DNA of 64,000 nt from Defluviimonas salinarum (GTDB lineage: Bacteria > Pseudomonadota > Alphaproteobacteria > Rhodobacterales > Rhodobacteraceae): contig NZ_JAPDOG010000004.1 of the NCBI RefSeq assembly GCF_026013545.1, positions 186,001 to 250,000 on the forward strand. The letters run 5' to 3'. The translations under genes were made by a program, and so were the position numbers. Positions 3,676 through 11,246 of this stretch are shown here, piece after piece (within the stretch, counting starts at the first letter, position 1; each line of letters opens with the position of its first letter). Below the pieces are notes generated by a model. That model saw nothing but the letters and a program-made list of their open reading frames with translations. It did not search any database and was not told the origin of the DNA.

Positions 3676-4647
3676 TCAGGCCTGTCCCGCTGCCGGACCC
3701 GGCTCCGCCGGTTCCGGCAGGGCGGCACCGGTTTCGGGCTCTTCGATGCCGACGAGAAGCCGGACCGCGTAGCTGCCCTGGCATTGCCCGAGACGCCCGT
3801 ATCCGATGAGGCGCCGCCCCCGGCCTTCCACGCGGAGCCTTGACAGCACGCCCTTCGAGAGCGTCAGCATCGCCCCCGGCTTCAGCGCCAGCACCTCGGC
3901 CAGCGGCAGCCTGACACGGTCGAGCACCGCCTCGAGATCGGCGCCCGCGCCCATCACCGCGGCCTCGATCCGGTCGCTCCAGACCCGGGCCGCCGCCGCA
4001 TCCTTCGCCGATTCCGGACCGGTCCCGCCCCGCGGGGCCGGGGCCGCTCCACGCCCCGCGGCCGGCAGGGCGATGAGGAGCGTTCCCTGCCGCGCGGCCT
4101 CGGCACCGAACCGCAGCGCGAGCGCGATCACGCGGTAGGCCGGCTCCTCGAGGATGAGCGCGAGCGGGCGCGGGTCTTCGAGAAACGAGGCATAGCGGAA
4201 GCCTCCGGCCCAGGTCAGCGCCGGATCGGACGCGAGGAGCGTCTCGGCGGTGCCGAGGACCCGGTCGAGAAACCGCGCCGACATCGCCGCATCGGTGCGC
4301 GTCGGCCGCCGCGCAGCAACGTCCGCACCGCCGATCCGCCCGGTGGTCTGGATCTCGATCAAGCTCGCCAGCGTTTCGGCCGACAGCACGGCGAGCCCGA
4401 GCCCCTCGCCCGGCCCCTCGATCACGGCAAGGAGCGCCCGGTCCGGCAACAGCTCCGGTATCTCCGCCGCCGACACCCGGGTCTCGGTAGCGTCATCGAC
4501 CGCCACCGCCAGCTTCAGCATCTCCTGCGCCGCCTTGGCGAAGGCCTGACCGAAAAGCCGCGCGGGCGTGGGCGCGGGATCGCCGGCGGCCGCCCTGCCC
4601 GCCCCGGCCTTCCGCTTCAAGACTGACTCTGGCGCGTGCTCGCTCAT
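3676..4647 (-). CDS. FliM/FliN (SpoA-domain) flagellar switch-like protein
   Basis: The frame encodes 323 residues ending in a SpoA-like domain (about 235-300) with the typical LPLAEVLALKPGAMLTL pattern of FliM/FliN C-ring proteins, plus a FliM-like middle domain. The N-terminus MSEHAPESVLKRKAG resembles the start of stand-alone FliM/FliN-family proteins of Rhodobacteraceae, so the ATG at 4647 is preferred over a GTG at 4674. GGAGG lies only one base from the ATG, so the start is uncertain. No other flagellar gene is present here. It could be a C-ring component encoded away from the main locus or a type III secretion-like paralogue. A Pro/Ala/Glu-rich tail (last 25 residues) is non-conserved in appearance. 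Confidence 0.7.
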   Translation of the reverse strand: MSEHAPESVLKRKAGAGRAAAGDPAPTPARLFGQAFAKAAQEMLKLAVAVDDATETRVSAAEIPELLPDRALLAVIEGPGEGLGLAVLSAETLASLIEIQTTGRIGGADVAARRPTRTDAAMSARFLDRVLGTAETLLASDPALTWAGGFRYASFLEDPRPLALILEEPAYRVIALALRFGAEAARQGTLLIALPAAGRGAAPAPRGGTGPESAKDAAAARVWSDRIEAAVMGAGADLEAVLDRVRLPLAEVLALKPGAMLTLSKGVLSRLRVEGRGRRLIGYGRLGQCQGSYAVRLLVGIEEPETGAALPEPAEPGPAAGQA

Positions 4648-4732
4648 GCCTCCGTTCCCGCCGCGATGGGCCACGGGCCTTCACGGGCCAGCGTCGCAGA
4701 CCAGCGTTACCAAAGTGTTGACCGGCGCCGGT

Positions 4733-7432
4733 TCAGGCGGCTTCCTGCGCCCTGATCTCGGGCTTGGCCGGCAGCGAGACCCGGAACGCCGCGCCGCCCT
4801 GGCCGGGCAGGTAGGCGATGGTGCCGCCGAGATTGGCCATGATCTCGCGGCAGATCGCGAGGCCGAGCCCGGCGCCGCCCGCCCGCGCGGTATCGGTCAG
4901 CCGCGCGAATTTCTCGAAGATCAGCCGCTGCGAGGCCTTGGGGATGCCCGAGCCGTTGTCGATGAAGTCGACGATGATCCGGTTGCCCCTGCGGCGCGCG
5001 TTGATCGTCAGCTCCGGCCGCTCGGCGTCGCAATACTTGCGCGCGTTCGAGACGAGGTTGATGAAGACCTGCACCAGCCGGTCGGTGTCGGTGATCACCG
5101 GGATATGCTCGGCCGGCTGGTCGCGGTGGATCACGAAACTCCGCTCCGGCCGGGTGTTCGAGGCCGAACGCACCGCCTTCGAGATCAGGTCGTGCAGGTT
5201 CGCCACCTTGACGTCGAGCTTGACCTTGCGGTTCTCCAGCACCGAGAGGTCGAGAAGATCGTCGAGCAGCCGCGTCAGCCGGATCGTCTCGTCATGGATG
5301 ACGCCGGCATATTGCTTCTGCATCTCGTCCGGCAGTTCCGGATCCTTGAGGATCTCCGAAAAGGCCCGGATCGAGGTCATCGGCGTCCTGAGTTCATGGC
5401 TGATCTGGCTCAGGAACGCGTCCTTCTGCACCGAGAGATCCTTGAGCTTGTCGTTGGCCTCCCGCAGTTGACGGGCGGTCCGCTCCAGCTCCTCGGACTT
5501 GGCTTCGAGCTGGGTCGAGTATTCGAGGATCTGCTGCGCCTCGGAAGCGACCGCCAGCAGATCCTGCGCCGAGACCGCCGCACCTTCCGCGAACTGCGCG
5601 ACCATCGCATGCGCCGTCGCCGCCCCGACCGCGCCCGAAAGCCGGCGTTCGAGCCGGTCGATGAAGTCGGGCGTGGTGTCGGGCAGGAAGCCGGCCTTGC
5701 CCTGGGCCTCGGCGCAGGTCCGGAAAAACTCCTGCGCCTCCTCGGCGCCGAGGATGCCCTGCGCCATCGTCAGGAGATCCTCGGCCTCGGCGCCGCCGCG
5801 CGACCAGCCGTGGGCGCCGGGATCGTGGTCGAAGGCGTTGACGAATGCGAGCCCCTGCATCCGCTCGACCGGGCTCGGGAAGGTCACGAGCGAGCCCGCG
5901 ACGAAGGCGAAGGTGTTGAGCGCGAGCGACCAGAAGACCGCGTGCATCAGCGGATCGAGCCCATAGGCTCCGAACAGCGCCTGCGGCCGGAGCCAGCCGA
6001 TTCCCCAGGGCCCCTCGGCGAGGATCGCCGTCGAAAGGAGCCCGCCCGCGCCGAACGACGGCAGGTAGAGCGTGTAAAGCCAGACGAGGAAGCCGGTGGC
6101 CAGCCCGAGCGCCGCGCCGATCCGGGTAGCGCCGCGCCAGAAGAGGCCCCCGAGCATCGCCGGCAGGATCTGCGCCACGCCGACGAAGGCGATGAGCCCG
6201 ATCGCGGCGAGCGCGGCCGAACCGCCCGAGAGGCTGTAATAGATGTAGCCTAGTGCCAGGATCGCCGCGATCGAGACCCGCCGCGACATCAGGATCAGCC
6301 CGCGCACATCGCCCGGCGCCTTGGCGCCGCCGGCGCGCAAGGACAGCCACAGCGGCGCCACGACATGGTTCGACACCATCGTCGCGAGCGCGATCGCGGC
6401 CACGATCACCATCGAGGTCGCCGAGGAGAAGCCGCCGAGGAAGGCGAGCATCGCGAGCTTGCCCTGGCCTTCGGCCAAGGGCAGCGTCAGCACGAAGAGG
6501 TCGGGATTGGCGCCCTCGGGCAGGACCGAAAGCCCGACGACCGCGATCGGCACGACGAAGAGGCTCATAAGCATGAGATAGAGCGGGAAGGCCCAGGAGG
6601 CGGTCGCGAGGTGGCGCTCGTCGGAGTTTTCCACGACCATGACCTGGAACATGCGCGGCAGGGTGACGATGGCGGCGGCCGAGACCAGGGTCAGCCCGAT
6701 CCAGCGACCGGGCACCAGCGGCCAGTCACCGATCGGCGAGGCGTCGATGCGCGCGGCGACATCGGTCCAGCCGCCGGCCACGCCCCAGACCACGAAGATG
6801 CCGACCGCCAGCAGCGCCACGAGCTTGACCACCGCCTCGAGCGCGATCGCCATGACCACGCCGTGATGGCGCTCGTTGGCGTCGAGGTTGCGGGTGCCGA
6901 AGAGGATGGTGAAGAGCGCGAGCCCGGCCGCCACCCAGAGCGCGGTCGCGCTCTGGTTCGGCAGCGCCCAGCCCTCCGGCGTGCCCGAGGCGAAGACCCC
7001 GAACGACAGCGTCACCGACTGCAGCTGCAGCGCGATATAGGGCGTCGCCGCGACGACGCAGATCACCGTGACGATGACGCCGAGGAGATTCGACTTGCCG
7101 TAGCGCGACGAGATCAGGTCGGCGATCGAGGTCACGCGCTGGCTCTGGCCGATCCGGACGAGCTTGCGCAGGAGGAGCCACCAGCCGACCAGCACCAGCG
7201 TCGGCCCAAGGTAGATCGTCAGGAACTCGAGCCCCGAGCGCGCCGCGTAGCCGACCGCGCCGTAGAAGGTCCATGCGGTGCAGTAGATCGACAGCGACAG
7301 AGTGTAGACGAGGGGCGAGCGCAGGAACCCCGCCTTGCCGCGCTCGGCGCGCCGCTCGGCCACGAAGGCCACGAGGAACAGCAGGCACACATAGACGAGG
7401 CAGACCGCGACGAGGATGTTGAACGGCACCAT
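4733..7432 (-). CDS. Sodium/solute symporter-fused sensor histidine kinase (CrbS-like)
   Basis: This 899-residue protein has about 13 membrane helices of the solute:sodium symporter (PutP/SLC5) fold over residues 1-520, then a linker and coiled coil. The kinase core follows, with phospho-acceptor His679 in SHELRTPMTSI, N box NLVSNARK (112-119 residues after His679), and G boxes DNGSGIP and GAGLGL. The architecture matches CrbS, which controls acetyl-CoA synthetase and acetate use in Pseudomonas and Vibrio. No PAS domain is apparent in the linker. The start overlaps by one base (TGATG) the stop of the small membrane protein before it, so the two are probably translated together. The response regulator and ScfR-type regulator upstream suggest control of short-chain acid metabolism. 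The ligand is inference. Confidence 0.9.
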   Translation of the reverse strand: MVPFNILVAVCLVYVCLLFLVAFVAERRAERGKAGFLRSPLVYTLSLSIYCTAWTFYGAVGYAARSGLEFLTIYLGPTLVLVGWWLLLRKLVRIGQSQRVTSIADLISSRYGKSNLLGVIVTVICVVAATPYIALQLQSVTLSFGVFASGTPEGWALPNQSATALWVAAGLALFTILFGTRNLDANERHHGVVMAIALEAVVKLVALLAVGIFVVWGVAGGWTDVAARIDASPIGDWPLVPGRWIGLTLVSAAAIVTLPRMFQVMVVENSDERHLATASWAFPLYLMLMSLFVVPIAVVGLSVLPEGANPDLFVLTLPLAEGQGKLAMLAFLGGFSSATSMVIVAAIALATMVSNHVVAPLWLSLRAGGAKAPGDVRGLILMSRRVSIAAILALGYIYYSLSGGSAALAAIGLIAFVGVAQILPAMLGGLFWRGATRIGAALGLATGFLVWLYTLYLPSFGAGGLLSTAILAEGPWGIGWLRPQALFGAYGLDPLMHAVFWSLALNTFAFVAGSLVTFPSPVERMQGLAFVNAFDHDPGAHGWSRGGAEAEDLLTMAQGILGAEEAQEFFRTCAEAQGKAGFLPDTTPDFIDRLERRLSGAVGAATAHAMVAQFAEGAAVSAQDLLAVASEAQQILEYSTQLEAKSEELERTARQLREANDKLKDLSVQKDAFLSQISHELRTPMTSIRAFSEILKDPELPDEMQKQYAGVIHDETIRLTRLLDDLLDLSVLENRKVKLDVKVANLHDLISKAVRSASNTRPERSFVIHRDQPAEHIPVITDTDRLVQVFINLVSNARKYCDAERPELTINARRRGNRIIVDFIDNGSGIPKASQRLIFEKFARLTDTARAGGAGLGLAICREIMANLGGTIAYLPGQGGAAFRVSLPAKPEIRAQEAA

Positions 7433-7747: not shown

Positions 7748-8116
7748 TCATCCGCCCGCCATCTGCCGCAGGGTCGCGACGATCTCGGAATTGACGAAGG
7801 GCTTGGCCATGAAGCGCGAGGCGCCGGCCTCGGTCGCCGCCGCGCGGTCCTCGGCCTGACCGCGTGCGCTCAGCACCAGCACCGGCAGGCCCGCGAGCGC
7901 GGGATCGGCGCGCAGGTCGCCGAGGATCTCGTAGCCCGAGCGGCCCGGCAGGATCATGTCGAGCACGAGCACATCCGGCGTCTCGCGCCGGATCGCCTCC
8001 ATCGCGCCGGTGCCCTCGCCGTGGCTCGCCACCGACCAGCCGTCGCGGGCGAGCAGGAACCGGATCGCCTCGGCGATATGCGGCTCATCCTCGATCAGCA
8101 GGACCCGTCTGCCCAT
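7748..8116 (-). CDS. Single-domain response regulator (CheY-like receiver)
   Basis: This 122-residue receiver domain has no output domain. It has the acidic pair ED (9-11), phospho-acceptor Asp53 in VLDMILPG, the Thr/Ser position at LSARG and the conserved Lys in MAKPF. The frame is open further upstream to 8281 across the end of the next gene, but the ATG at 8116 starts directly at the first beta strand (MGRRVLLIEDE) and is chosen. CrbR partners of CrbS kinases normally carry a LuxR-type DNA-binding domain. This one does not, so signalling must go through another protein, possibly the adjacent XRE regulator. It lies between that regulator and the kinase on the same strand. Confidence 0.85.
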   Translation of the reverse strand: MGRRVLLIEDEPHIAEAIRFLLARDGWSVASHGEGTGAMEAIRRETPDVLVLDMILPGRSGYEILGDLRADPALAGLPVLVLSARGQAEDRAAATEAGASRFMAKPFVNSEIVATLRQMAGG

Positions 8117-8237
8117 GTGCCGCCTGACCTCCCCGCGTCGCGCCATCCCGATCCGACTATCACCGAAGTTCCCGGCGGCTGTCAAAACCAAGTCGCGCAT
8201 CATGGCGAACCGCTGGAGCCGCCGCTCCGGCCGCACC

Positions 8238-9542
8238 TCAGCCCTCCTCGGCAAGAATCGAGGGCTCGCGCCGCGCCACACAGCCGCCGCGCGGGCAGAT
8301 ACGGCAGGAGGGGCCGATCGACCGCTCGCCGCCGCGTTCCTCGGGTGCCGGCAGGATGAGCATCTGCGCCTCGACCACCTGCGGCCCGTCGAAGCCGCCG
8401 GGATGGCGCGGCTCGCTGAACGCGTAGGTCAGGAATCGCTGCGGCACCCGCCCCGCCATCTCGACCGCGGCGCGGATCGGCACCATCGGCCGCGCGAGCG
8501 CCTCGTAGAGCGGCCACAGGGGACAGGCCGCCCCGTGGCGCGGCAGCGCGAATCCCGGCGCGGGCCTGCGGAAGGTCAGCGTCCCCGAGGCGTCACAGGC
8601 GACAAGCCCGACCGGCGGCCCCTCACCCTCGGGCAGCGCCGCGAGCCGCCGGAACACCTGCGCGAGCCCCGCCCCCGTCGCCTGCGCCAGCGCCGCCGGA
8701 TCCGGCCCCACCTCGGCCAGCGCCCGCCGGAACCCGTCGAGCGGCAGCGCCACCGCGTCCGTGCGATAGCGCGCGATATGGGCGAGCGCGAGCTTGCGCG
8801 CCGCCCCGCTCGCCAGTTCCGGCACCCCGGCGATGAGCGTGTCGGCCTGCGGCGGATGGGCGCGTTCCAGCGCCGCGAGGTGATAGGCCGACTTCGCGAG
8901 CCAGGCCTCGACCTCCTCCTGCGGCGAGGAAAGCCCGGTCTCGCTCTCCTTCGTCGCATCGAGATAGGCCACGAGCGCGGCCGCCGCCTCGCTCAGACGA
9001 ACGCTGTCCTCGTAGACGTTCCGGTGGAAGCGCGCCCGCCACGCGGGGTCGATCTCCTCGGTCTCGGCCAGGATCGCCGCGGTCGAGCGCAGCGAGGTCA
9101 CCGCCGAGACCACCTCGTGCAGCGAGGCGAAGAGGAACGGGTCGTGCGCCATGCGCTCGTTGAGCGCCTCGACCGTGCGCTCAAGCGTACCGATCCGCGC
9201 CTGCACCGCCGCCAGAAGCGCGGCCCAGCCGGGGAAACGTCCGACGAATTCCTCGATCCGCGCGACCTCCGGCGTGGCCTCGCCGCCCGCCATGCCGGCC
9301 GCCGCCTCGCGCAGCCCCTCGAAGAGCGCGCTCTCGGCGCCCTCGGCCAGCGCCGCCTCCTCGACCCCGAGCGCATCGGCGAGCCCGGCGAGCAACTCCG
9401 CACCCACCCGGCGCCGGTTATGCTCGATGAGGTTGAGATAGGCCGGCGAGATGCCGACCGCCCGCGCCAGATCGGCCTGCTTCATGCCGATCAGCAGGCG
9501 CCGTTCCCGCACCCTCGTCCCGGTCAGTGCCGATCGTGCCAT
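8238..9542 (-). CDS. Short-chain acyl-CoA-responsive XRE regulator (ScfR/RamB type)
   Basis: This 434-residue regulator has an N-terminal XRE helix-turn-helix (about 8-65: MKQADLARAVGISPAYLNLIEHNRRRV). A long middle region and a C-terminal DUF2083-like domain follow, ending in the family's cysteine-rich signature SCRICPRGGC-VARREPS. The family includes RamB and ScfR, regulators of acetate, propionate and glyoxylate-cycle genes. In many Rhodobacteraceae the gene borders acetyl-CoA synthetase. Here the neighbours are a CrbS-like kinase and a receiver protein, which supports a shared role in short-chain acid sensing. The coding frame runs close to the response regulator start, about 120 bases apart. 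Confidence 0.88.
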   Translation of the reverse strand: MARSALTGTRVRERRLLIGMKQADLARAVGISPAYLNLIEHNRRRVGAELLAGLADALGVEEAALAEGAESALFEGLREAAAGMAGGEATPEVARIEEFVGRFPGWAALLAAVQARIGTLERTVEALNERMAHDPFLFASLHEVVSAVTSLRSTAAILAETEEIDPAWRARFHRNVYEDSVRLSEAAAALVAYLDATKESETGLSSPQEEVEAWLAKSAYHLAALERAHPPQADTLIAGVPELASGAARKLALAHIARYRTDAVALPLDGFRRALAEVGPDPAALAQATGAGLAQVFRRLAALPEGEGPPVGLVACDASGTLTFRRPAPGFALPRHGAACPLWPLYEALARPMVPIRAAVEMAGRVPQRFLTYAFSEPRHPGGFDGPQVVEAQMLILPAPEERGGERSIGPSCRICPRGGCVARREPSILAEEG

Positions 9543-9641
9543 GCGCTCCCCGCCGCGGCCGCGACGCCGCTCCGGCCCCGCGCTGCGAGTTTACAGCTTT
9601 CCCGAATGAGTTGATAGCGTTGCGCGCCGCTTTTCAGCGCA

Positions 9642-9818
9642 TCAGCAATTCGGCGGCGCGACGTCGAGCGTGCGCTCCACCACCGGCTTGCCGCCCGCGC
9701 AGGCAGTGAGCGGCGTCTTGTCGCGCGAACAGGCCGACAGCGCCGCGATCAGGCTCAGTCCGATGGCGGCATATCCGGCCGCCCGCATGCCCCGCCCTTG
9801 CTCCGTCGCTTTCGTCAT
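9642..9818 (-). CDS. Micro-lipoprotein A (58 aa precursor), paralogue of the next gene
   Basis: The precursor is 58 residues with a lipobox LSAC, so the mature protein would be only 29 residues: the lipid-anchored Cys plus 28. Cysteines lie at +10 and +28 after the lipobox Cys, and the protein ends DVAPPNC. The neighbouring gene has the same layout, including the terminal DVAPxxC. Two starts are possible: ATG at 9818 (MTKATEQGRG...) or ATG at 9788 (MRAAGYAA...), which alone still gives a full signal peptide. Location would be the outer or inner membrane facing the periplasm. The function is unknown. The paired free or disulfide cysteines suggest a redox or metal role, but that is speculation. 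Confidence 0.65.
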   Translation of the reverse strand: MTKATEQGRGMRAAGYAAIGLSLIAALSACSRDKTPLTACAGGKPVVERTLDVAPPNC

Positions 9819-9904
9819 CGCCGCCGCGTCCCTCGTTTCCGGTTCGTCCGAGATAGACCGCGAACCGGCGGCGAGGGCAAGCGAAAAGGCACCGCCCGCC
9901 GGCC

Positions 9905-10075
9905 TCAGCAGCCCACAGGCGCGACATCGGCCACGCGGGAGATGTCCGCCACGCCCTCCTCGCATTGCCCGATCGCCTGTTGCTGCGGTTCGCAGGCCGC
10001 AAGGCCGCCGATCATCGCACAAGCCAGAACCCCGAGGCGCAGGCCGCCCGCCAGTCTCGCCAGGATCAACGCCAT
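9905..10075 (-). CDS. Micro-lipoprotein B (56 aa precursor)
   Basis: The frame was found by reading the minus strand. A textbook Shine-Dalgarno AAAGGAG sits six bases before ATG 10075, followed by 56 codons. The product has a signal peptide with lipobox LAAC at 25-28 and then 28 residues ending DVAPVGC. Cysteines fall at +10 and +28 from the lipobox Cys, exactly as in micro-lipoprotein A 87 bases downstream, so this is a tandem duplication that has diverged. The same-strand arrangement suggests cotranscription. It is too short for most gene finders and I know no described family. Confidence 0.7.
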   Translation of the reverse strand: MALILARLAGGLRLGVLACAMIGGLAACEPQQQAIGQCEEGVADISRVADVAPVGC

Positions 10076-10203
10076 GTTCACTCCTTTCGTTCGCTCCCAA
10101 CCGCCGGACCGGCTCTCCGTCCCGGACTCCGGCCCGACACCACGCCGTTGCGCCAGAACCTTGCCAGTTCTGCCGCGCCCGGGCCCTGACGGCGATCAAC
10201 CGG

Positions 10204-10236
10204 AGAAAAAGAACGCGCGGGGCAGAGCCCCGCGCG
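10204..10236 (-). terminator. Rho-independent terminator of the pyrimidine ABC operon
   Basis: A perfect 10-bp stem CGCGCGGGGC/GCCCCGCGCG (10214-10223 and 10227-10236) with a 3-base loop is followed on the minus strand by TTCTTTTTC. It lies 27 bases after the stop of the substrate-binding protein, closing the operon that starts at hyuC. Confidence 0.85.
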
Positions 10237-10262
10237 CCATCTGTTCCGGTTCGGGCGAAAGG

Positions 10263-11246
10263 CTACTGCAGCGCCTTGTCGGTGATCTGGTGGGTCCAGG
10301 CCCCTTCCGGCGCCTTCGAGATCACCGGATCCGAGCCGCCGCCCAGCAGCGTCGCCACCGTCCGCTCGTAATCGGCCTCGTCCAGGGCCCCGTTCGACCC
10401 CGCGGTGAGCTTGGCGATCTCGCCCATCATCCGCTTCTGATGCGCCTCGGTCTGCGCCCCGGTCTCGTCGTTGTCGAGGACGATCATCGCCGCGTCATCG
10501 GGATTCTCCTCGGCCCATTTCCAGCCCTTCATCGAGGCCCGGACGAACCGCACGAGCTTGTCCTCGAAGGCCGGGTCCGCAAGCTTGTCCTCAAGCACAT
10601 AGAGCCCGTCCTCCAGCGTCGCCACGCCCTGATCCTCGTACTTGAAGGTCACGAGGTCACCCTCGCCGATCCCGGCATCGATGACCTGCCAGTACTCGTT
10701 GTAGGTCATGGTCGAGATGCAGGAGGCCTGCTTTTGCAGCAAGGGATCGACGTTGAAGCCCTGCTTCAGCACCTCGACCCCGTCCGCGCCACCCGTGGTC
10801 GGGATGCCGAGCTGGCTCATCCAGCTCAGGAACGGATACTCGTTGCCGAAGAACCAGACGCCGAGCGTATGGCCCTTGAAGTCGTCCGGGCTCGCGATCC
10901 CGCTCTCCTTGAGGCAGGTCAGCATCATGCCCGAGGACTTGAACGGCTGCGCGATGTTGACGAGCGGCAGCCCCTTCTCGCGCGCGGCGAGCGCGGCCGG
11001 CATCCATTCGACCGTCACATCGGCACCGCCGCCCGCGATCACCTGGGTCGGCGCGATGTCGGGCCCGCCCGGCTTGATCGTGACGTTGAGGCCCTCCTCC
11101 TCGTAGAACCCGTTCTCGAGCGCGACGTAATAGCCCGCGAACTGAGCCTGGGTCACCCACTTCAGCTGCAGGGTCAGGTCGTCGGCCGCCTGCGCCGCGC
11201 CGCCCCCGAACCCCGCGATCATCGCCGCGGTCAAGATCTTCTTCAT
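10263..11246 (-). CDS. NMT1/THI5-like ABC substrate-binding protein, pyrimidine/hydantoin importer
   Basis: This 327-residue periplasmic protein has a signal peptide (1-20, ending AAQA) and the NMT1/THI5 (ThiY-like) fold: LQLKWVTQAQFAGYYVALENGFYEEEGLNVTIKPGG at 26-61 and the GGADV segment. ThiY-type proteins bind pyrimidine-like compounds. Here the gene is last in an operon with two permeases, an ATPase, dihydropyrimidinase and an M20 carbamoyl hydrolase. The likely ligand is therefore uracil, thymine, dihydropyrimidine or a hydantoin rather than thiamine precursor. GGAGG lies near the ATG and a strong terminator follows. Family is clear; ligand is inference from context. Confidence 0.88.
   Translation of the reverse strand: MKKILTAAMIAGFGGGAAQAADDLTLQLKWVTQAQFAGYYVALENGFYEEEGLNVTIKPGGPDIAPTQVIAGGGADVTVEWMPAALAAREKGLPLVNIAQPFKSSGMMLTCLKESGIASPDDFKGHTLGVWFFGNEYPFLSWMSQLGIPTTGGADGVEVLKQGFNVDPLLQKQASCISTMTYNEYWQVIDAGIGEGDLVTFKYEDQGVATLEDGLYVLEDKLADPAFEDKLVRFVRASMKGWKWAEENPDDAAMIVLDNDETGAQTEAHQKRMMGEIAKLTAGSNGALDEADYERTVATLLGGGSDPVISKAPEGAWTHQITDKALQ

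What the first reader, a model, noticed from the sequence alone, without database searches (positions are those of the whole stretch)
9642..10075. Tandem micro-lipoproteins with matched cysteines, an apparently undescribed family
Two adjacent minus-strand genes encode precursors of 58 and 56 residues. Each ends its signal in a lipobox (LSAC, LAAC), and each then has exactly 28 residues with cysteines at +10 and +28 and the terminal word DVAPxxC. Almost nothing else is conserved between them. A mature lipoprotein of 29 residues with fixed cysteines is near the minimum for a functional lipoprotein and is easily missed. The shared geometry makes coincidence very unlikely.
Basis: partly seen in the sequence, partly recalled or inferred. 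Interest (0 to 1): 0.75.

Follow-up and report, generated by a model that had tools for sequence, protein, structure and literature searches.

The report
Low-oxygen micro-lipoprotein family with cysteine pair
Two neighbouring tiny genes appear to encode membrane-anchored peptides with a fixed pair of cysteines; they belong to a real but unnamed bacterial family, and one of the two carries a control switch of the type that bacteria use to respond to lack of oxygen.

Summary
Two minus-strand genes (A 9642-9818, 58 aa; B 9905-10075, 56 aa) encode lipobox precursors with cysteines 10 and 28 residues after the lipid one. They belong to one family: 43 members collected, from 21 of 22 genomes of the genus (Albidovulum/Defluviimonas) and 12 of 293 other genera sampled in the family. 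No library tried names it. Sister pairs show purifying selection on the mature part. The DVAPxxC tail typifies A (18 of 18), not B (1 of 22).

20 of 22 B genes carry an FNR-type box (TTGAY-N4-RTCAA, at least 9 of 10 positions; 0.22 expected), with a -10-like hexamer 22 nt downstream, the class II FNR geometry. Of 83 comparison regions without the gene, 2 have such a box. A has a different promoter-like element. B thus looks like an oxygen-controlled, lipid-anchored peptide, probably closed by one disulfide, usually lying between a pyrimidine-uptake operon and an ScfR/RamB-type regulator gene. I infer an envelope adaptor or regulator; the partner is unknown. nosZ shows no enrichment. Nothing was tested at the bench.

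The parts
9642..9818 (-). Gene A: 58-aa lipoprotein precursor (LSAC lipobox; mature C-x9-C-x17-C, tail DVAPPNC)
   Evidence: A-type alignment A1: C30, R32, T38, C40, P45, R49 and DVAPPNC invariant in 17 sequences; start could be ATG 9818 or ATG 9788
9905..10075 (-). Gene B: 56-aa lipoprotein precursor (LAAC lipobox; mature C-x9-C-x17-C, motif CEEGVADIS)
   Evidence: B-type alignments A4 and A6
10081..10086 (-). Shine-Dalgarno-like AAGGAG of gene B
   Evidence: Read
10186..10199 (-). FNR-type box TTGATCGCCGTCAG (9 of 10 positions) upstream of gene B
   Evidence: 20 of 22 B genes have a box at 9 or more of 10
10158..10163 (-). -10-like hexamer CAAGGT, 22 nt downstream of the box (class II FNR spacing)
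   Evidence: A at position 2 and T at position 6 peak at exactly this offset across B genes
10212..10238 (-). Intrinsic terminator that closes the upstream transporter operon before the box, so B is probably its own transcription unit
   Evidence: hairpin -25.2 kcal/mol, z -5.27
9852..9881 (-). Promoter-like element of gene A (CTTGCCCTC-N9-TCGCGGTCTATC), one match in the genome with up to 3 mismatches
   Evidence: clear by eye in 14 of 18 A genes, weak in G004, G015, G017 and G300
8238..9542 (-). ScfR/RamB-like regulator gene directly downstream of A (neighbour, not part of the family)
   Evidence: PF09856, RamB-like; same-strand downstream neighbour in 19 of 21 loci of the genus
10263..11246 (-). 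NMT1-type substrate-binding protein, last gene of the pyrimidine-uptake operon (neighbour)
   Evidence: PF09084; upstream in 16 of 21 loci of the genus

Best explanation
A and B are two paralogues of one family of secreted, lipid-anchored micropeptides. Supported here by sequence: both are coding, related, conserved in the mature part and carry a cysteine pair kept in every member seen; B-type genes have an FNR-type box and a correctly spaced -10-like hexamer, so they look like class II targets of FnrL or a Dnr-type relative. Inferred: when oxygen falls, FnrL (encoded in this genome) activates B. The precursor is exported by Sec, lipidated at the lipobox cysteine, cut and anchored in a membrane. 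The two remaining cysteines form one disulfide, closing a loop of about 17 residues (CE.GV.(D/E)(L/I)S...P..C). That loop docks on an envelope partner as an adaptor or regulator needed at low oxygen. A is a younger copy, seen only in this genus and Frigidibacter, with its own promoter-like element and a more rigid tail (DVAPPNC), acting on the same or a related partner under other conditions. Family, lipoprotein nature and FNR control of B: about 0.85 that all hold. The disulfide loop: about 0.65. The adaptor/regulator role: about 0.35; the partner is unknown.
For: Coding and conserved: alignments A1, A4, A6. Spread: 14 genomes in 13 genera at E <= 1e-5 among 295 family genomes with A4, read as complete lipobox precursors. 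Cysteine pair in 43 of 43 (partly by selection). Mature-part dN/dS in sister pairs: A 0.05-0.31 (5 pairs), B 0.06-0.32 (5 pairs), signal part of the same pairs 0.28-1.51; hybrids 0.11-0.17. FNR box at 9 or more of 10 in 20 of 22 B (shuffle expectation 0.22), mean best score 9.59 against 6.65 in shuffles; 2 of 18 A. Control: 2 of 83 SBP-downstream regions without the gene, scored over 400 nt. Class II spacing: hexamer signal peaks at offset 22 (22 promoters); 0 of 5000 shuffles reached it at any offset for 13 promoters, one per other genus plus three of this genus. Terminator before the box. FnrL-like ORF with a CGDC...CARC cysteine cluster in this genome. The box agrees with published FnrL/Fnr sites (PMC4634722, PMC5398030; passages).
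Against: No expression, lipidation or binding data. B_G011 and B_G279 reach only 8 of 10 and hybrid G008 7 of 10. Genus members are related, so the 20 boxes are not 20 independent events (11 other genera have B; 10 of these reach 9 or more). Among the six carrier regions in the SBP survey, only two show a box of 9 or more within 400 nt; of the other four one is an A gene, two are weak candidates, and in one (G251) the gene and its box lie further on. dN/dS between genera is around or above one: six of the eight B pairs with the lowest pS give 1.06-1.51, and A pairs with G013 reach 0.77 and 0.91; synonymous change there is saturated and bounded by high GC, so selection rests on sister pairs only. 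nosZ is not enriched among carriers. Fold models are low confidence (mean pLDDT 60 and 68) and say nothing about the disulfide. The family is patchy: 281 of 294 genera sampled show no member at E <= 1e-5.
Confidence: 0.6

Rival explanations
1. Accessory of the pyrimidine importer: the peptide helps the substrate-binding protein or the ABC permease, and is kept next to the transporter for that reason.
For: SBP upstream on the same strand in 16 of 21 loci of the genus; the transporter or a dihydropyrimidinase gene lies upstream in 8 of 12 loci of other genera, in one of them with an NCS1-type permease (PF02133) in place of the ABC genes.
Against: Five loci of the genus have the lipoprotein without the SBP in the fetched stretch (one of them a 4-kb contig). 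84 of 90 SBP-downstream regions examined, of 250 genomes with the SBP, show no family member within about 1.5 kb. G312, G167 and G310 have the gene with no transporter in the fetched stretch. A terminator and a separate promoter-like region lie between the operon and B.
Confidence: 0.12
2. An entericidin-like pair: tandem small lipoproteins of which one is toxic and the other an antidote.
For: Two tandem small lipoprotein genes with separate promoter-like regions recall the ecnA-ecnB arrangement (recalled).
Against: A alone in 7 and B alone in 1 of 22 genus genomes, and one gene seen in each other genus; no Pfam hit to any toxin family. The fixed cysteine pair is not a feature of entericidins (recalled).
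Confidence: 0.08
3. A metal, heme or copper carrier for low-oxygen respiratory enzymes, with the cysteine pair as ligand.
For: FNR-type control and lipid anchor; NosL-like carriers are lipoproteins of denitrification (recalled).
Against: No CxxC and no conserved His or Met in the mature part; nosZ not enriched: of the 14 carrier genomes only G000, G003, G225 and G300 are among the 73 of 290 genomes that match. Other respiratory enzymes were not tested.
Confidence: 0.08
4. The conserved thing is the DNA or an RNA (promoters, leader or small RNA), and the ORFs are incidental.
For: The upstream elements are strongly conserved.
Against: Conservation follows codons in sister pairs; lipobox and cysteines persist across genera whose upstream DNA differs outside the box; no Rfam family at E <= 0.1.
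Confidence: 0.04

Closest known systems
Small auxiliary membrane proteins of respiratory systems (TorE/NapE family)
   Same: Very small envelope proteins reported to help membrane components of alternative respiration (PMC6134056; only the start of the abstract seen, in the listing)
   Different: Described there as small membranous proteins; that they are not lipoproteins is recalled. No sequence comparison with TorE/NapE was made apart from the Pfam scans, which gave no such hit; no respiratory operon was identified beside our genes
LptM (YifL), small lipoprotein of LPS transport
   Same: Small lipid-anchored precursor; weak similarity (PF13627 in 1 of 26 members at 0.0061; PDB 9leg_D 'Lipoprotein', E 0.11, profile positions 12-38)
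   Different: The PDB match covers the signal/lipobox region and a few residues after it; other neighbours; LptM's conserved stretch and its lack of this cysteine pair are recalled
Entericidins EcnA/EcnB
   Same: Two small lipoproteins encoded in tandem (recalled)
   Different: No Pfam match; cysteine pair; FNR-type box on B instead of stationary-phase control (recalled)
FnrL regulon of Rhodobacter capsulatus
   Same: Published FnrL site (T/C/A)TGA-N6-TCAA fits the B boxes; its Table 1 lists a directly activated lipoprotein gene RCC02479 and several hypothetical genes (PMC4634722, passages)
   Different: I could not see the sequence of RCC02479; whether it is a relative is untested

Membership tests
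This micro-lipoprotein family (defined here) | Lipobox, then a mature part of 25-32 residues with two further cysteines, the last within 3 residues of the C-terminus | tested here: met
   43 of 43 collected members once the lipobox nearest the mature part is taken; partly by selection
Bacterial lipoproteins (Lgt/LspA substrates) | N-terminal region, hydrophobic stretch, lipobox with Cys | tested here: met
   By sequence reading; no signal-peptide predictor was run
Bacterial lipoproteins (Lgt/LspA substrates) | Actual lipidation and processing | not testable with these tools
   Needs labelling or mass spectrometry
FnrL/Fnr regulon (gene B) | TTGAY-N4-RTCAA site upstream | tested here: met
   Window B 9 of 10; 20 of 22 B genes at 9 or more
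FnrL/Fnr regulon (gene B) | Class II position relative to the -10 element | tested here: met
   Peak at offset 22; transcription start sites not known
FnrL/Fnr regulon (gene B) | Oxygen- and FnrL-dependent expression | not testable with these tools
   No expression data at hand
FnrL/Fnr regulon (gene A) | TTGAY-N4-RTCAA site upstream | tested here: not met
   2 of 18 A genes at 9 or more (G013, G018); window A 6 of 10
Entericidin | Match to a Pfam family | tested here: not met
   0 Pfam families for the two window proteins at E up to 10; among 26 members at 0.01 only PF13627 in one
LptM | Match to the conserved LptM region (PF13627) | tested here: not met
   1 of 26 members, E 0.0061; cannot be told from signal-peptide similarity
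Phage lysis or spanin lipoproteins | Match to a PHROGs family | tested here: not met
   0 families for 26 members at E <= 0.01

The most novel reading that the evidence does not exclude
A previously unnamed class of oxygen-switched, lipid-anchored loop peptides whose disulfide state itself is the signal: made when oxygen falls, when disulfide formation becomes limiting, the peptide reports envelope thiol status to a partner, with A as the constitutive and B as the low-oxygen form.
Probability: 0.12. Interest if true: 0.8.

Novelty: new variant of a known kind. Interest (0 to 1): 0.5.

Why it matters
Genes this small are easily missed by gene callers, and few small lipoproteins have a condition attached (both recalled). 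Here the sequence itself suggests the condition: low oxygen through an FNR-type regulator. That makes a function testable in culturable genera (Defluviimonas, Albidovulum, Frigidibacter). It also adds a gene group to the likely anaerobic regulon of Rhodobacteraceae that the protein libraries tried do not hold.

Tried and rejected
Plasmid records searched with the intergenic DNA and with one A and one B protein: no relevant match. Class-wide search with A1 (289 genomes): besides G000, four weak hits at 0.0018-0.0092; I read the ORFs of three of their loci (L060, L061, L063) and rejected those, and did not read the fourth (L062). B-type models were not searched outside the order: A6 in 196 genomes of the order hit 7 genomes, all of this family, and every row listed there is of this family, so it tells little about other families. 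Of the 80 genomes with a match at E <= 0.01 I kept the 14 at E <= 1e-5. G088 (2.5e-4) was read; the other 65 were not read, and most of their listed matches cover only the signal part. G057, G143 and G279 A1 hits were read and rejected. G088 (A1, 1.1e-8) and G132 (E 0.017-0.041) are possible diverged members, not counted. In one search, loci L003, L024, L028 and L030 (E 0.07-0.42) showed no member and were dropped; tallies 22 of 22 genomes only because it allowed E up to 1. Transporter link: rejected as the main explanation after the 90-locus survey. Denitrification link through nosZ: not enriched. A promoter as an RpoHII promoter: considered with PMC3441632 (passages) and left open, since TTG and CTA lie two bases too far apart by my count; a strict sigma-70 scan found no promoter in 9450-10350. 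Structure prediction gave low-confidence models. The first FNR control (1 of 84) measured from fixed offsets, which misplaced at least one locus near a contig end; I recounted from the real SBP stop (2 of 83, one further region of 171 nt left out). The stated odds did not need to change.

Paper searches aimed at the family: (open-licence PMC library only); others returned no paper, the others none that describes it in the listing. Only the papers named in the report were opened, and only as passages.

Full report
The observation. Counted from the lipid cysteine as zero, both have cysteines at 10 and 28 and a DVAPxxC tail. Neither has a match in Pfam at E up to 10; NCBIfam gives only a 14-bit hit for B to a glycoprotein family with a 50-bit cut-off.

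A real family. A search of 22 genomes of the genus with B and reading of the loci gave members in 21 of 22: A+B in 10, A only in 7, a hybrid with an A-like head and a B-like tail in 3, B only in 1, none confirmed in G010 (84% complete, 350 contigs). Named records place the genus in Defluviimonas/Albidovulum, and A also occurs in Frigidibacter. In A, R32, T38, P45, R49 and the tail DVAPPNC are invariant in 17 sequences. In B, CE, V36 and the Pro are invariant and G35 nearly so in 18 sequences, one of them a hybrid. In 295 genomes of the family, mostly one per genus, model A4 finds 14 genomes in 13 genera at E <= 1e-5, and the hits outside the genus read as complete lipobox precursors. Outside the family the evidence is thin: A1 in 289 genomes of the class gave nothing convincing (three of four weak loci read), and the B-type model was run only in the family and in a sample of the order (7 of 196 genomes, all hits in this family).

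Selection. For sister pairs dN/dS of the mature part is 0.05, 0.19, 0.24, 0.27 and 0.31 for A and 0.06, 0.16, 0.24, 0.28 and 0.32 for B; the signal part of the same pairs gives 0.28-1.51. Hybrids give 0.11-0.17. The pairs were chosen as near relatives within the genus, plus G312/G167, which share neighbours. Against this, pairs between genera reach one or more: G239/G251 1.06, and six of the eight B pairs with the lowest pS lie at 1.06-1.51. These are saturated and GC-bound, so I rest on the sister pairs. Each estimate rests on 25 to 32 codons.

Neighbourhood. The gene lies between the end of a reductive pyrimidine operon and a regulator gene. The region includes dihydropyrimidinase (TIGR02033, 604 bits) and PreA (NF006183, 730 bits), and the ABC importer ends in an NMT1-type SBP. 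The regulator is of the ScfR/RamB kind (PF09856), a family that in Paracoccus includes the activator of the glyoxylate cycle (PMC10370305, passages). In the genus, ScfR follows in 19 of 21 loci and the SBP precedes in 16 of 21. Among 12 loci of other genera, 9 have ScfR on the same strand downstream (directly in 4, otherwise with other genes between), 8 have the transporter or a dihydropyrimidinase gene upstream, and 3 have neither. The SBP occurs in 250 of 295 genomes, yet 84 of the 90 SBP-downstream regions I examined show no lipoprotein of this family, so the transporter does not require it.

Regulation, the main new result. Reading the upstream DNA of all 43 genes showed an FNR-type palindrome before the B genes. 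Scored over 190 nt, 20 of 22 B genes reach 9 or 10 of 10 positions against 0.22 expected from dinucleotide shuffles; hybrids 2 of 3; A genes 2 of 18. Among 83 SBP-downstream regions without the gene, scored over 400 nt from the SBP stop, 2 have such a box (L211 10 of 10, L227 9 of 10); the first lies before an ORF that does not resemble the family. If the box worked as a class II site, a -10 hexamer should begin 22 nt after it. The A2/T6 signal peaks at exactly 22, and none of 5000 mononucleotide shuffles reached it at any offset for 13 promoters. I had looked at several promoters by eye before this test. In the window a strong terminator closes the transporter operon before the box. The genome encodes a Crp/Fnr protein with an FnrL-like cysteine cluster (the assignment is by reading and recall). 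The published FnrL and Fnr sites agree (PMC4634722, PMC5398030; passages).

A has another control. By eye 14 of 18 A genes share CTTGC....TCGCGGTCTATC about 50-85 nt before the start; in G004, G015, G017 and G300 it is weak. In this genome it occurs once with up to 3 mismatches, so it is a gene-specific element and not a regulon motif at that stringency. Hybrid G006 carries both an FNR box and this element at full length; G007 carries a box and a form of the element some 6 nt shorter.

Function. What sequence supports is a lipid-anchored peptide with a fixed cysteine pair and, for B, FNR-type control. The disulfide, the anchoring membrane and the adaptor role are inference. nosZ occurs in 73 of 290 genomes, and of the 14 carrier genomes only G000, G003, G225 and G300 are among them, so I found no link to denitrification. 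Other low-oxygen functions were not tested.

Novelty. No library tried named the family, and seven paper searches aimed at it in the open-licence library showed no description. Subscription journals and the RefSeq annotation of these ORFs were not searched.

Noticed in passing
window 8238-9542 and 29 ScfR loci (L064-L093 without L086): TGTAAA-type repeats upstream of scfR orthologues: the 7-mer ATTTACA/TGTAAAT in 16 of 29 upstream stretches against 3 of 300 random stretches of the same loci; possibly the ScfR/RamB operator.
   Followed up: partly
L039 and L037 (hybrid lipoprotein genes of G006, G007): Single hybrid gene with an FNR-type box and the A-type promoter element (shortened in G007), and an A-like head with a B-like tail: looks like a fusion of the two genes or the state before they split.
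   Followed up: no
L070 (G032), between SBP and scfR: A 32-residue lipobox ORF that ends right after the lipid cysteine (GCGVI, then stop), possibly a decayed family member.
   Followed up: no
L208 (G132), 156-356 on the SBP strand: A lipoprotein ORF directly after the SBP with three mature cysteines and the tail DISPEGC; possible diverged member without a detectable FNR box.
   Followed up: partly
L139 and L142 (G312, G167): B-type gene away from the pyrimidine locus, in both cases upstream of an ORF beginning M(K/N)RKPLGRTGLMVSEFCLGTMTWGSQNTE, which looks like an aldo/keto reductase (recalled; ORFs listed).
   Followed up: no
window 4733-7432 and 7748-8281: Large sensor histidine kinase and a response-regulator receiver protein next to ScfR; the kinase resembles CrbS of the acetate switch (recalled, not tested).
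   Followed up: no
window 3676-4674: Protein with a FliM/FliN C-terminal domain (PF01052); its surroundings were not examined for flagellar genes.
   Followed up: no
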